Of a stretch of 64,000 bases of DNA, positions 47,755 through 54,148 are shown one piece after another. Origin of the DNA: Legionella steelei (GTDB lineage: Bacteria > Pseudomonadota > Gammaproteobacteria > Legionellales > Legionellaceae). The stretch is from assembly GCF_001468005.1 (NCBI RefSeq), contig NZ_LNYY01000021.1, positions 248,637-312,636 of the forward strand, given 5' to 3'. Position numbers and translations under genes: made by a program. Position 1 is the first letter of the stretch, and every line of letters starts with the position of its first letter. The notes beneath the pieces were generated by a model. That model worked only from the letters and a program-made list of their open reading frames with translations, had not been told where the DNA came from and searched no databases.

Positions 47755-50700
47755 ATGCCTCGACAAAAAGAAAAAAAGGATGTTGGGAACAATGGCGGAT
47801 CGTTTGATCTCCCCAAAAATCATGCCTCAATGGAAGATAGATTGCGCGATATTCTCGAAGCGATTGAGTCGGTACGGCGAGGTGACTTATCCAAGCGCTT
47901 AAAAAAAGATCACTATGATATTTTTGGAGAAATAGCGGATTCCTATAATAGCATGATGGAAGGATTAAGTAGCTTTACTTCAGAAGTTACTCGTGTCGCT
48001 CGTGAGGTAGGTACCGAAGGTAAATTGGGCGGTCAAGCACAAGTTCCCGGTGTTACAGGGACATGGAAAGAATTAACCGACAATGTGAATGCGATGGCGG
48101 CAAATTTAACCAGCCAGGTGCGCAATATTGCACAAGTCACCACTGCTGTTGCCAGTGGTGATCTCAATCAAAAAATTACTGTTGAAGTAAAAGGCGAAGT
48201 GCTGGAGTTGAAAAATACCATTAACAAGATGGTTGATAATTTAAGATCGTTTTCTGGTGAGGTAACACGGGTTGCAAAAGAAGTAGGTACCGAAGGGAAA
48301 TTAGGTGGGCAGGCGCAGGTTCCTGGCGTCACCGGCACATGGAAAGAGTTAACGGATAATGTGAATGCTATGGCGGCAAATTTAACCAACCAAGTGCGTA
48401 ATATTGCACAGGTTGCGACTGCAGTTGCTAAAGGTGATCTGAATCAAAAGATAACGGTTGAAGTCCAAGGTGAAATGCTGCAACTGAAAGAAACCCTGAA
48501 TAAGATGGTGGATAGTTTGACCATCTTTGCTTCAGAAGTAACACGGGTTGCCAAGGAAGTGGGTACGGAAGGAAAACTTGGTGGGCAAGCACAAGTGCCT
48601 GGTGTGACTGGTACGTGGAAAGAATTAACCGACAACGTGAATGCGATGGCGGCAAATTTAACCAGCCAAGTACGTAATATTGCTCAAGTTGCGACCGCGG
48701 TTGCAAAAGGGGATTTGAATCAAAAGATTACTGTAGAAGTATTAGGGGAAGTGTTGCAACTGAAAGAAACAATCAACAAGATGGTCGATAGCTTAACGAT
48801 TTTTGCTTCAGAAGTAACGCGGGTGGCCAAGGAAGTGGGTACGGAAGGAAAGCTTGGTGGGCAAGCACAAGTACCCGGTGTGACCGGTACGTGGAAAGAA
48901 TTAACCGACAACGTGAATGCGATGGCAGCAAATTTAACCAACCAGGTGCGCAATATCGCGCAAGTCACAACAGCTGTAGCGAGCGGTAATCTAAATCAAA
49001 AAATTACTGTTGAAGTAAAAGGCGAAGTATTGGAATTAAAGAACACCATTAATGATATGGTGGATAATTTAAGATCATTTTCAGGTGAGGTAACGCGGGT
49101 AGCAAAAGAAGTTGGTACTGAAGGAAAACTAGGTGGCCAGGCGCAAGTGCCTGGTGTGACCGGTACATGGAAAGAATTAACCGATAATGTGAATGCGATG
49201 GCAGCAAATTTAACCAGTCAGGTGCGTAATATTGCACAGGTTGCAACTGCGGTGGCTGATGGTGATCTGAATCAGAAAATTACGGTTGAAGTCAGTGGAG
49301 AAATTCTGCAGCTTAAAGAAACACTGAACAAGATGGTTGATAACTTAAACCTTTTTGCCGCTGAGGTAACGCGAGTTGCGAAAGAAGTAGGTACTGAAGG
49401 AAAATTAGGTGGCCAGGCCTCAGTGCCAGGAGTAGGCGGCACTTGGAAAGAATTAACCGCAAACGTGAATGCGATGGCGTCTAACCTTACTGATCAAGTG
49501 CGTAATATTTCAAAAGTTGCGGTCGCAATTAGCGCAGGGGATTTGACGCAAAAAATTACCGTTGAAGCCAAAGGCGAAGTATCACTTCTAAAAGAAACCA
49601 TCAATAAAATGGTTGATGACCTCAATCGCTTAGCCAGTGAGGTATCGCGTGTGGCGCAAGTAGCGGGTAAAGAAGGTAGATTAAATGAGCGTGCTAATGT
49701 TGAGGGGGTTGGTGGTAGTTGGAAAGATATTGTTGATAAATTAAATAATCTCCTTAATTCAATTGCTACACCAGTACAAGAGGTCATTCGTTTGGCAGTT
49801 GCGCTTTCTATGGGGGATGTGTCGCAACGCGTCAGTATTGAAACTCAGGGTGATATTAGAACGTTATCTGATGCATTGAATAAGTCTTTTGATGATTTAG
49901 GCGCGTTAATTCGTTTTGCGATGGATAGTTCGACCAAAGTTTCTGGAGCATCAGTACAGCTCGCAGATATTTCCAAGCAAGTGAGCAATACGTTGCAGCA
50001 AGCTGCAAGCACGACGCAACAAATCGCTGTTGGTGCGAAAGAACAGGCGAAAAAATTGGAGTCAAGTACACGAATCGTTACGGAACTCTCTAAATCGATT
50101 CAACAAGGGGCCACAAATTCACGTACAGCAGCGGAAGTAACTCAAGAGGCAGCAAAATTGGCAAGCAGGGGTACTGATGCAGGAAAACAAGCGGCAACAA
50201 GGCTCAAATCTATTGATGATATTGTGAAGTCGAATACTGACACTGTAAAAGATCTGGATAAACGAGCTAAAGAAATTGGGGTAATCGTTGGCACGACTAA
50301 AGACATCGCCGACCAAACCAACCTTCTGGCTTTAAATGCGGCGATTGAAGCGGCACGAGCTGGTGAGGCAGGGCGTGGGTTTGCTGTAGTGGCTGACGAA
50401 ATTCGCAAGCTTGCTGAAGGTACCAAAAAAGCAGCGGTGCAAATTGAGGGCATGGTTAATACCATTTTGGAGTCGACTACTCAGGTGGTTGAAGGTATGA
50501 CCACAGGTACACAGAAAGTCACTGAATCAATCGATATTGTCAATGAAGCGCTCAGTGTTCTTGGACAAATTAGTTCTGGAACCCAGGAAATTACCATCAA
50601 GGCACAAGAAATTTCTACTGCAACATCAGAGCAAGCGAAGGCTGCCTTAGCCGTTGCAAAAACAACAGAAGAAATCTCGGCAACATCAGAGCAAGCAGCA

Positions 50701-50871
50701 GTTGGTGCTGAACAAATGTCCTCATCAATTCAGCAACAAACGGCCAGTATGCAACAAATGACGGTGTCTGCTTCGAATTTATCAGTTCTGTCTGATGAGT
50801 TAAGAACCGCATTGAAGCGATTTAAAGTGGTCTATATGGCTTCTGAAACACATGTGCTCAGGAGTGAATAA
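47755..50871 (+). CDS. Cytoplasmic poly-HAMP methyl-accepting-type chemoreceptor
   Basis: 1,038 residues with no membrane segment or signal peptide. After a first HAMP-like unit (VRRGDLSKRLKKDHYDIFGE), six ~92-residue HAMP repeats follow almost identically (EVGTEGKLGGQAQVPGVTGT, WKELTDNVNAMAANLT, GDLNQKITVEV), then one diverged unit. These repeats closely resemble those of Nik1-type group III histidine kinases. The C-terminal half is an MCP signalling hairpin with the tip near residues 835-890 (IADQTNLLALNAAIEAARAG, EAGRGFAVVADEIRKLAEGT). No CheR-binding pentapeptide ends the protein. The ATG at 47755 is preferred over the TTG at 47731. It begins a five-gene operon (ATGs overlap or abut) and should drive the downstream CheA through CheW. 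The input is unknown, perhaps osmotic or a cytosolic partner. Confidence 0.92.
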   Translation: MPRQKEKKDVGNNGGSFDLPKNHASMEDRLRDILEAIESVRRGDLSKRLKKDHYDIFGEIADSYNSMMEGLSSFTSEVTRVAREVGTEGKLGGQAQVPGVTGTWKELTDNVNAMAANLTSQVRNIAQVTTAVASGDLNQKITVEVKGEVLELKNTINKMVDNLRSFSGEVTRVAKEVGTEGKLGGQAQVPGVTGTWKELTDNVNAMAANLTNQVRNIAQVATAVAKGDLNQKITVEVQGEMLQLKETLNKMVDSLTIFASEVTRVAKEVGTEGKLGGQAQVPGVTGTWKELTDNVNAMAANLTSQVRNIAQVATAVAKGDLNQKITVEVLGEVLQLKETINKMVDSLTIFASEVTRVAKEVGTEGKLGGQAQVPGVTGTWKELTDNVNAMAANLTNQVRNIAQVTTAVASGNLNQKITVEVKGEVLELKNTINDMVDNLRSFSGEVTRVAKEVGTEGKLGGQAQVPGVTGTWKELTDNVNAMAANLTSQVRNIAQVATAVADGDLNQKITVEVSGEILQLKETLNKMVDNLNLFAAEVTRVAKEVGTEGKLGGQASVPGVGGTWKELTANVNAMASNLTDQVRNISKVAVAISAGDLTQKITVEAKGEVSLLKETINKMVDDLNRLASEVSRVAQVAGKEGRLNERANVEGVGGSWKDIVDKLNNLLNSIATPVQEVIRLAVALSMGDVSQRVSIETQGDIRTLSDALNKSFDDLGALIRFAMDSSTKVSGASVQLADISKQVSNTLQQAASTTQQIAVGAKEQAKKLESSTRIVTELSKSIQQGATNSRTAAEVTQEAAKLASRGTDAGKQAATRLKSIDDIVKSNTDTVKDLDKRAKEIGVIVGTTKDIADQTNLLALNAAIEAARAGEAGRGFAVVADEIRKLAEGTKKAAVQIEGMVNTILESTTQVVEGMTTGTQKVTESIDIVNEALSVLGQISSGTQEITIKAQEISTATSEQAKAALAVAKTTEEISATSEQAAVGAEQMSSSIQQQTASMQQMTVSASNLSVLSDELRTALKRFKVVYMASETHVLRSE
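47977..49705 (+). repeat. Tandem ~276-bp coding repeats (poly-HAMP array)
   Basis: Six successive 276-bp units plus a diverged one, with long identical blocks (for example the codons for GKLGGQAQVPGVTGTWKELT). Units pair up as near-duplicates (first and fourth GEVLELKNTIN-type; second and third GE(M/V)LQLKET-type), which indicates past internal duplication and makes the array prone to copy-number change and to assembly collapse. Confidence 0.9.
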
Positions 50872-53494: not shown

Positions 53495-53500
53495 GTCATT

Positions 53501-54148
53501 ATGAAGATAGAGAAACGATTCAATGAGTTAATGAGCTTTGCGGCATCAGAAGCAACCTTTGCATTTTCAAAATTATTAAACCAGCAGATGACGCTGGCAG
53601 GCACTGACGTCAGTGTGCAAGTATGTGAGGTCCAAAGTAGCATTAAAGAGAGCATCAAAGAAGAAGTTGCCCAGATTAATCCCAACTTGGGAGGTGCTGT
53701 CATTATGACTACCCCATTGCTTGGTACTTTAGAGGGTTTTGGTTCATATATTTTACCAAGAACTTCTGCTTTAAAAATCTGTGATGTGCTTTTGCATAGA
53801 AACCTTGGGTCAACTATTCAATTAGGAAGCCTTGAAGAGTCTGCTCTATTGGAGTCGGGAAATATAGTTGTTGGCTGTTTTTTAAATGCTTTAGGTTATG
53901 TGTCCGTATTAGATAATATTTTGCATAAAAAAATGACTCTTACGGTTAGTGCCGATAATGAGATTCCTAATTTAAGTTATATAAGCTCTAAAAGTGAATA
54001 TAGAATTCGTGTTAGCTTTTATATGAAACATATCGTTCAAGAGGATCATCAGTGTGCTGATATTGATGGGATTTGTGTTTTTTTCTTTGACAGTGCTAAA
54101 GTGACAGAACGATTAAATATGCCACACAATCCTGAAAAGAGTTGGTGA
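53501..54148 (+). CDS. cheC: CheC-like CheY-P phosphatase
   Basis: 215 residues, starting six bases after the cheA stop. One phosphatase helix is clear, EESALLESGNIVVGCFLNAL near residue 115 (CheC pattern E-x3-N-x-x-G-x-x-L-N-A-L); a second, weaker one lies near residue 15 (RFNELMSFAASEATFAFSKL). CheC and CheX remove phosphate from CheY where CheZ is absent, which fits this operon. Only one helix has the full Glu/Asn pair, so it may be a one-site version. An alternative is a CheC-derived adaptor without activity. Confidence 0.78.
   Translation: MKIEKRFNELMSFAASEATFAFSKLLNQQMTLAGTDVSVQVCEVQSSIKESIKEEVAQINPNLGGAVIMTTPLLGTLEGFGSYILPRTSALKICDVLLHRNLGSTIQLGSLEESALLESGNIVVGCFLNALGYVSVLDNILHKKMTLTVSADNEIPNLSYISSKSEYRIRVSFYMKHIVQEDHQCADIDGICVFFFDSAKVTERLNMPHNPEKSW

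What the first reader, a model, noticed from the sequence alone, without database searches (positions are those of the whole stretch)
47755..54148. Five-gene chemosensory operon built on a cytoplasmic poly-HAMP receptor and lacking CheR/CheB
Order: receptor, CheW, CheY, CheA, CheC-like. The receptor is soluble, has about eight HAMP units of the Nik1 (group III kinase) type joined to an MCP hairpin, and no CheR-docking tail. CheC replaces CheZ. No methyltransferase, methylesterase or flagellar gene is near. This suggests a non-adapting array that governs something other than swimming, possibly pili, c-di-GMP or osmotic response.
Basis: partly seen in the sequence, partly recalled or inferred. 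Interest (0 to 1): 0.8.

Follow-up and report, generated by a model that had tools for sequence, protein, structure and literature searches.

The report
Cytosolic poly-HAMP chemosensory operon in Legionella
A few Legionella species carry a small bacterial sensing pathway whose receptor floats inside the cell and is built almost entirely from a chain of about fifteen repeated relay modules of a kind otherwise seen in stress-sensing kinases; the parts are known, the combination is unusual, and what it senses and steers is unknown.

Summary
The five-gene operon is real: soluble receptor, CheW, CheY, P2-less CheA, CheC-like, in that order. Corrections: the receptor has about 15 HAMP domains (8 canonical alternating with 7 divergent), not eight; CheY is 123 aa; the CheC-like protein is very divergent and keeps one of two active-site motifs. 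The genome is a Legionella. It also encodes CheR and CheB, in a second, unrelated chemosensory cluster ending in a receiver-cyclase protein, and flagellar genes in a locus without che genes. So neither "non-adapting" nor "not swimming" is established. The operon is intact in 5 of 45 genus genomes held and a deletion remnant in a sixth. All six have FlhA, but most FlhA-bearing genomes lack the operon (no significant association). The poly-HAMP array is 65-78% identical to arrays in long, hybrid-kinase-type frames of other genera; none of 31 such loci shows a chemoreceptor tip in the fetched DNA. New result: at similar synonymous divergence, dN/dS of the HAMP array is about 16-fold lower than that of CheA (0.008 against 0.13), without gene conversion, and the receptor has no cysteine. 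That suggests the array is itself the conserved sensor or relay. Best filed as a new variant of a known kind.

The parts
47755..50871 (+). Soluble poly-HAMP chemoreceptor, 1038 aa from ATG 47755 (an in-frame TTG at 47731 would add 8 aa)
47836..49935 (+). Poly-HAMP array, about 15 HAMP domains; seven 92-aa repeats lie at about 47920-49851
   Evidence: boundaries approximate
49945..50787 (+). MCP signalling hairpin, tip Glu at residue 879 (numbered from TTG); gap-free over 267 residues against PDB 6s18; no C-terminal CheR-docking pentapeptide seen by eye
   Evidence: boundaries approximate
50871..51368 (+). CheW, overlaps the receptor stop by one base
51520..51891 (+). CheY, receiver only, 123 aa; phosphorylation Asp and the Thr and Lys positions present by eye; short insertion after the Asp by eye
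51902..53494 (+). CheA without P2; Hpt His, N box and G boxes found in 5 of 5 genomes
53501..54148 (+). CheC/CheX-like protein; second active-site motif (S114-x3-E118-x2-N121) invariant in 6 of 6, first motif lost

Best explanation
A self-contained cytosolic chemosensory pathway. The receptor, presumably a dimer, is a long rod of about 15 HAMP domains ending in an MCP hairpin; it has no membrane span, PAS or other recognisable input domain (shown by sequence). The most likely scheme is that the HAMP array itself reads an intracellular condition, by a change in packing or by binding a small molecule, and passes it as alternating HAMP conformations to the hairpin (inferred, by analogy with Aer2 poly-HAMPs and group III hybrid kinases). 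The hairpin, through CheW, sets the activity of the P2-less CheA; CheA phosphorylates the receiver-only CheY; the single-site CheC-like protein resets CheY (domains shown; reactions inferred). Output is by diffusible CheY-P. The likeliest single target is the flagellar motor switch (about 0.4), because the genome has flagellar genes and the flagellar locus that I read has no che genes; type IV pili or another target are open. Adaptation is either absent or supplied in trans by the other system's CheR/CheB.
For: Domains and order. Catalytic motifs of CheA present in 5 of 5. CheC assignment (negative control 99). Syntenic in L. steigerwaltii and Legionella sp. PATHC038. Mean dN/dS at similar mean dS (0.63-0.80): HAMP array 0.008, hairpin 0.018, CheW 0.084, CheA 0.131, CheC 0.144, CheY 0.162. 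The 92-aa repeats 1-6 differ from one another at 37-59% of codons with the same residue, so identity is held by selection, not by recent duplication or conversion; seven repeats in all five species. Flagellar locus without che genes. CheA and CheW only 24-26% identical to the second system's. Aer2 HAMPs were built into Tar and the chimeras signalled (PMC3570549, passages).
Against: No ligand, localisation or phosphotransfer data. All six genomes with the CheC-like gene have FlhA, but so do 29 of the 39 without it (Fisher p 0.31). The FliM peptide that could bind CheY is kept in all 16 genomes where FliM was found (17 examined), seven of them without any chemoreceptor hit, so it does not discriminate. 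The AlphaFold model of the CheC-like protein failed (mean pLDDT 33.5). dN/dS is Nei-Gojobori with high dS for some pairs (up to about 1.2), five related genomes, no significance test.
Confidence: 0.65

Rival explanations
1. This is the swimming-chemotaxis system of these Legionella species: CheY-P from the operon acts on FliM of the flagellar motor.
For: FlhA in 6 of 6 genomes with the CheC-like gene, 5 of 5 with the intact operon; no che genes between fliA and motAB in the own genome; stand-alone CheY plus a dedicated likely phosphatase; FliM N-terminal motif present.
Against: 30 of 40 genomes without the intact operon also have FlhA (p 0.57). FliM motif equally kept in receptor-free species. 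No linkage to flagellar genes in the window. The 2017 review states that chemotaxis behaviour of Legionella had not been reported, although its reference list holds a 2013 paper with chemotaxis of Legionella in the title (PMC5655016, passages; that paper not read).
Confidence: 0.35
2. One reading: a non-adapting array that controls something other than swimming (pili, c-di-GMP, osmotic response).
For: No cheR/cheB/cheD in the operon; CheD not found in the genome; the genome's only CheR/CheB matches lie in another cluster. Poly-HAMP kinases elsewhere act in osmotic and antifungal responses (PMC7643160 and PMC6433957, passages).
Against: CheR and CheB exist in trans; Q/E pairs at heptad spacing remain in the hairpin; flagellar genes present; no pilus or c-di-GMP gene in the operon.
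Confidence: 0.3
3. The receptor feeds into, or borrows adaptation from, the second chemosensory system (CheW-CheR-CheW-MCP-CheA-CheB-receiver/cyclase).
For: Both systems occur in the same genome; the CheR and CheB there are the only matches.
Against: Hairpin tip sequences differ (DQTNLLALNAAIEAAR against QQSKMLALNASIEASK) and the arms align with insertions; each cluster has its own CheW and CheA at about 25% identity.
Confidence: 0.15
4. A decaying foreign locus without present function.
For: Patchy: intact in 5 of 45 genomes, one deletion remnant (G005: CheA C-terminal 100 aa plus intact CheC ORF), not found in the close relatives G017 and G019.
Against: All five genes are open in 5 of 5 genomes with mean dN/dS of at most 0.162; CheA motifs kept.
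Confidence: 0.07

Closest known systems
Group III (Nik1-type) hybrid histidine kinases and bacterial poly-HAMP kinases (e.g. Myxococcus AskA/AskB)
   Same: Soluble, long chain of alternating HAMPs with no other input domain; the array here is 65-78% identical (71-78% in 27 of 31 loci, best match per genome) to arrays in open frames of 1,099-2,248 aa from other genera.
   Different: Output is an MCP hairpin, not a kinase: 0 of 31 matching loci from other genera showed an MCP tip motif in the fetched DNA, 19 of 31 showed a kinase H box, 12 of 31 showed neither within the fetched flank. The receptor has no cysteine, so the thiol-aldehyde sensing proposed for fungal Drk1 (PMC6433957, passages) cannot apply as such.
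Aer2/McpB soluble poly-HAMP chemoreceptors (F7 systems)
   Same: Soluble receptor with consecutive HAMPs and an MCP hairpin.
   Different: P. aeruginosa Aer2 has three plus two HAMPs around a PAS domain (PMC7184735, passages); no PAS here. NCBIfam Aer2 model 262.5 bits against a cut-off of 1200.
FrzCD of Myxococcus xanthus
   Same: Cytoplasmic receptor, HAMP tandem, no obvious sensing domain, own CheA/CheW/CheY (PMC12077210, passages).
   Different: Two HAMPs, a DNA-binding domain, CheR/CheB homologues FrzF/FrzG; here about 15 HAMPs, only a short N terminus, no CheR/CheB in the operon.
Legionella longbeachae chemotaxis cluster llo3298-llo3303
   Same: Chemosensory genes in Legionella.
   Different: By gene order that cluster resembles the other locus of this genome (CheW, CheR, CheW, MCP, CheA, CheB), not the poly-HAMP operon; the longbeachae sequences themselves were not compared.
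CheC/CheX-containing systems (Bacillota; CheX next to receiver genes in Nostoc and Sphingobium plasmids)
   Same: CheC-family protein beside CheA and CheY genes; closest profile match is the CheX-annotated set.
   Different: Single active-site motif and no CheD; homologue found in 1 of 369 class genomes at E 1e-5 (own only) and in no plasmid record at E 0.01.

Membership tests
Chemosensory (Che) pathway | MCP hairpin, CheW, CheA with Hpt, dimerisation, ATPase and CheW-like domains, and a CheY | tested here: met
Chemosensory (Che) pathway | Hexagonal receptor-CheA-CheW array | not testable with these tools
   needs cryo-tomography
Nik1-type poly-HAMP sensors | Tandem canonical plus divergent HAMP pairs of about 92 residues without a transmembrane span | tested here: met
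   65-78% identity to arrays in hybrid-kinase-type frames; no direct comparison with fungal Nik1 was run
Group III hybrid histidine kinase | Kinase core and receiver on the same chain | tested here: not met
   MCPsignal instead
Aer2-type receptor | PAS domain between or before the HAMPs | tested here: not met
Adapting (methylating) chemoreceptor system | Dedicated cheR and cheB in the operon | tested here: not met
   single CheR and CheB elsewhere
Adapting (methylating) chemoreceptor system | Methylation-site motifs in the hairpin | tested here: inconclusive
   two strict motifs (residues 963 and 997, numbered from TTG) and heptad-spaced Q/E pairs; no biochemical data
CheC/CheX phosphatase | Sequence homology to CheC or CheX | tested here: met
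   weak but specific: control 99; no Pfam hit for the window protein
CheC/CheX phosphatase | D/S-x3-E-x2-N active-site motif (definition recalled) | tested here: met
   one of two sites, invariant in 6 of 6
CheC/CheX phosphatase | CheC/CheX fold | tested here: inconclusive
   AlphaFold model unusable, mean pLDDT 33.5
Flagellar chemotaxis system | Linkage to flagellar genes | tested here: not met
   the flagellar locus found lies about 0.46 Mb away on the same contig
40H receptor length class | Arm length of 20 heptads | tested here: inconclusive
   gap-free to 6s18 over 267 residues, 14 residues of gap to Tsr 1qu7 in the N arm; class of 6s18 recalled, no class model run

The most novel reading that the evidence does not exclude
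A stress-type poly-HAMP sensor, elsewhere wired to hybrid histidine kinases, has been joined to a chemoreceptor hairpin, so that a free-floating array reads an internal state of the cell by a cysteine-independent mechanism and steers the flagellum. This would be a swimming-control pathway in a genus best known for flagella without chemotaxis genes, and a natural system for testing what poly-HAMP chains sense.
Probability: 0.2. Interest if true: 0.75.

Novelty: new variant of a known kind. Interest (0 to 1): 0.5.

Why it matters
What long poly-HAMP chains sense is not settled even in fungi, where they are tied to antifungal action (PMC6433957, passages). Here a chain of about 15 HAMPs is under far stronger protein-level constraint than the kinase, regulator and phosphatase it serves, and it is joined to an output (CheA activity, CheY-P) of a well-studied kind. 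The published accounts that I saw (PMC2824747 and PMC5655016, passages) speak of one chemotaxis operon in some Legionella. The own genome has that type of cluster and this second, separate system, with flagellar genes; four other genomes have this operon, FlhA and further receptors, their CheR/CheB not being searched. I did not find this operon described in the PMC open library (searches; listings, and passages of the papers cited); subscription papers were not searchable.

Tried and rejected
FliM test: the N-terminal CheY-binding motif is kept in 16 of 17 loci examined (the other, G028, gave no FliM hit), including all seven from genomes without an MCP hit, so it cannot tell whether CheY has a motor target.

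Flagella co-occurrence: 5 of 5 intact-operon genomes have FlhA against 30 of 40 others, Fisher p 0.57; for the CheC-like gene 6 of 6 against 29 of 39, p 0.31. Not significant.

Thiol or methylglyoxal sensing as in fungal Drk1: rejected for the receptor itself, 0 cysteines in 5 of 5 receptors.

Gene conversion as the reason for repeat identity: rejected, repeats 1-6 differ at 37-59% of codons with the same residue (Met and Trp left out).

Recent horizontal transfer among the five species as the reason for receptor identity: rejected, mean receptor dS (0.79) is at least that of the other four genes (0.63-0.77).

Poly-HAMP/MCP fusions in other genera: none seen in 368 other class genomes at E 1e-120 (nine matches, none with an MCP tip motif in the fetched DNA) and none in 397 other phylum genomes (23 matches, likewise). 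Limits: the two samples overlap in part; the tool scored two candidates per genome; flanks of about 1.5 kb leave the C terminus unread where no kinase H box was seen (12 of 31 loci). Plasmid records: 0 of 167 matching records cover 80% of the receptor in one place.

CheC fold by AlphaFold: failed. Promoter/terminator scan: promoter-like sites 13 against 18.3 in shuffles, terminator-like 7 against 5.2, nothing to build on. Origin of the operon: not resolved; GC of the receptor gene 0.443, other four genes 0.352-0.369, window 0.384. Chemosensory class assignment (F classes) not attempted: no class models at hand.

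Full report
Where it lies. The window is G000:C21:248637-312636 of a 4.23 Mb, 21-contig genome. Its CheA is 86-88% identical to CheA in the same gene context in Legionella steigerwaltii and Legionella sp. PATHC038, and two genus genomes, G040 and G025, have contigs of the same lengths as those records. So the host is a Legionella; the species is not known.

What is there. Receptor 47755-50871, CheW 50871-51368, CheY about 51520-51891, CheA 51902-53494, CheC-like 53501-54148, all on +. Spacing is -1, 151, 10 and 6 bases. The CheY ORF reaches back to 51373, but the ATG at 51520 follows a GGAG stretch, and in G040 a stop lies in frame ten codons before the equivalent ATG.

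Receptor. GTWK-type anchors fall at exactly 92-residue steps, seven in all. Each step holds one canonical HAMP (GE anchor, eight found) and one divergent HAMP (GTWK anchor, seven found), about 15 HAMP domains. The HMMs agree roughly: seven PF00672 places in the gene, one of them below the cut-off (six stretches), and seven PF18947 stretches. The array is followed directly by an MCP hairpin with tip Glu at residue 879 (numbered from the TTG). The hairpin aligns without gaps over 267 residues to PDB 6s18 and needs 14 residues of gap in the N arm against E. coli Tsr, which fits the longer 40H class (class of 6s18 recalled, not tested). No transmembrane peak and no cysteine in 5 of 5 orthologues; no CheR-docking tail by eye.

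Selection. Among the five intact operons, mean synonymous divergence is similar for all genes (0.63-0.80), but mean dN/dS is 0.008 for the HAMP array, 0.018 for the hairpin, 0.084 CheW, 0.131 CheA, 0.144 CheC, 0.162 CheY. Repeats 1-6 within the gene share 65-96% of residues yet differ at 37-59% of the codons for shared residues, so this is purifying selection on old repeats, not fresh duplication. All five species keep seven repeats. The method is Nei-Gojobori, dS is high for some pairs (up to about 1.2), and no test of significance was made. Poly-HAMP arrays are also well conserved outside the genus: best match per genome 65-78% identical over 31 loci, 71-78% in 27 of them. So the low rate is probably a property of the module rather than of Legionella.

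CheC-like gene. No Pfam hit, NCBIfam CheC E 8.8e-4. The profile of six orthologues hits only two CheC entries among PDB sequences at E up to 1 (best 1.2e-4). hhalign: CheX-annotated set prob 85.6, E 5.6e-6 over 175 columns; two Bacillota CheC prob 50.9, E 1.6e-4; CheW control prob 0.07. The second active-site motif S-x3-E-x2-N is invariant in 6 of 6; the first falls against a gap in the alignment to CheC. AlphaFold gave no usable model. I take it as a single-site CheY-P phosphatase by inference.

Rest of the genome. One CheR match, one CheB match and four MCP matches. CheR, CheB and one MCP lie in a second cluster: CheW, CheR, CheW, MCP, CheA, CheB, then a receiver joined to a class III cyclase domain. 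The order resembles llo3298-llo3303 of L. longbeachae as described by Cazalet 2010 (PMC2824747, passages). Its CheA and CheW are 24-26% identical to those of the operon and its receptor has a different tip. CheD was not found. Flagellar genes are present at C21:760-779 kb: FlhA by Pfam; FliM, FliN, FliA, MotA, MotB and others named by eye, with no che genes between fliA and motAB. No other poly-HAMP protein was found: besides the receptor, one search gives one HAMP hit; that search is not exhaustive, since it missed a HAMP in the second system's receptor seen.

Distribution. CheC-like gene in 6 of 45 genus genomes; poly-HAMP receptor in 5 of these. The sixth, G005, keeps only the last 100 residues of CheA and an intact CheC ORF, beside an upstream lipase-like gene 79% identical to the one upstream of the operon in PATHC038: a deletion. 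On a FliM tree of 16 genomes, G031 falls outside a group of the other five plus G017 and G019, which lack the operon (this node 0.684, another 0.621, so weak). In the class sample the CheC-like gene occurs in 1 of 369 genomes, the own one. Poly-HAMP arrays occur in 10 of 369 class genomes and 24 of 398 phylum genomes, own included in each; none of the 31 distinct other loci shows an MCP tip motif in the DNA fetched, 19 show a kinase H box and 12 neither.

Output. FlhA is in 35 of 45 genus genomes, 6 of 6 with the CheC-like gene; the association is not significant. FliM's N-terminal motif is uninformative. The 2017 review says that chemotaxis behaviour of Legionella had not been reported and that che genes lie in a subclade of clade I (PMC5655016, passages); its reference list, however, holds a 2013 paper with chemotaxis of Legionella in the title, which I did not read. 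The passages that I saw do not mention a poly-HAMP operon ('HAMP' occurs 0 times in that text).

Comparison. The pathway is a chemosensory system and works like one; the input half is of the kind found in group III hybrid kinases and bacterial relatives (PMC7643160, passages). P2-less CheA is common, nearly 52% of CheA sequences (PMC10782961, passages). Aer2 and FrzCD are the nearest described soluble HAMP-tandem receptors (passages) and differ as listed. The combination of a hybrid-kinase-type poly-HAMP array with an MCP hairpin and a CheC-like phosphatase was not found elsewhere in the samples searched.

Verdict. Real, ordinary in its parts, unusual in its combination. The strongest new point is the extreme constraint on a cysteine-free HAMP array with no other input domain.

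Noticed in passing
L007:6466-14922 (G000:C19, about 1,949,466-1,957,922): Second chemosensory cluster CheW-CheR-CheW-MCP-CheA-CheB followed by a receiver/class III cyclase protein; suggests that a longbeachae-type che system may signal through a cyclic nucleotide rather than a classical CheY.
   Followed up: partly
L051:9325-11607 (G005): Deletion remnant of the operon: last 100 residues of CheA and an intact CheC-like ORF next to a lipase-like gene.
   Followed up: yes
L008:7714-9126 (G000:C2): Orphan receptor of the second system's type that lacks about 150 residues relative to its paralogues, including the second membrane-span region, on a 62 kb contig near genes that look like metal transporters by eye.
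   Followed up: no
L008:3842-6598: Multicopper-oxidase-like protein (by eye) with 15 tandem copies of the six-residue unit MDS[N/S]MK.
   Followed up: no
window 13425-15520: BLUF-PAS-PAS protein next to a PAS-GGDEF diguanylate cyclase: possible blue-light to c-di-GMP pair.
   Followed up: no
window 47205-47500, minus strand: By eye, a possible decayed PAS-domain fragment upstream of the receptor; not checked with a tool.
   Followed up: no
window 4187-8023: Phage-type integrase beside a Tn3-family transposase and a DUF4158 ORF.
   Followed up: no
genus genomes: Fourteen of 45 genomes have more than one FlhA-family match; in 11 of the 14 the second lies in a frame of 667-712 codons, in line with the putative second flagellum or T3SS operon mentioned in PMC5655016 (passages); the other three are pieces or a weak hit.
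   Followed up: no
L022, L089 (G028): One genus genome has two MCPs of other lengths and higher scores and the only CheD among the 45, so it probably carries yet another kind of chemosensory system.
   Followed up: no
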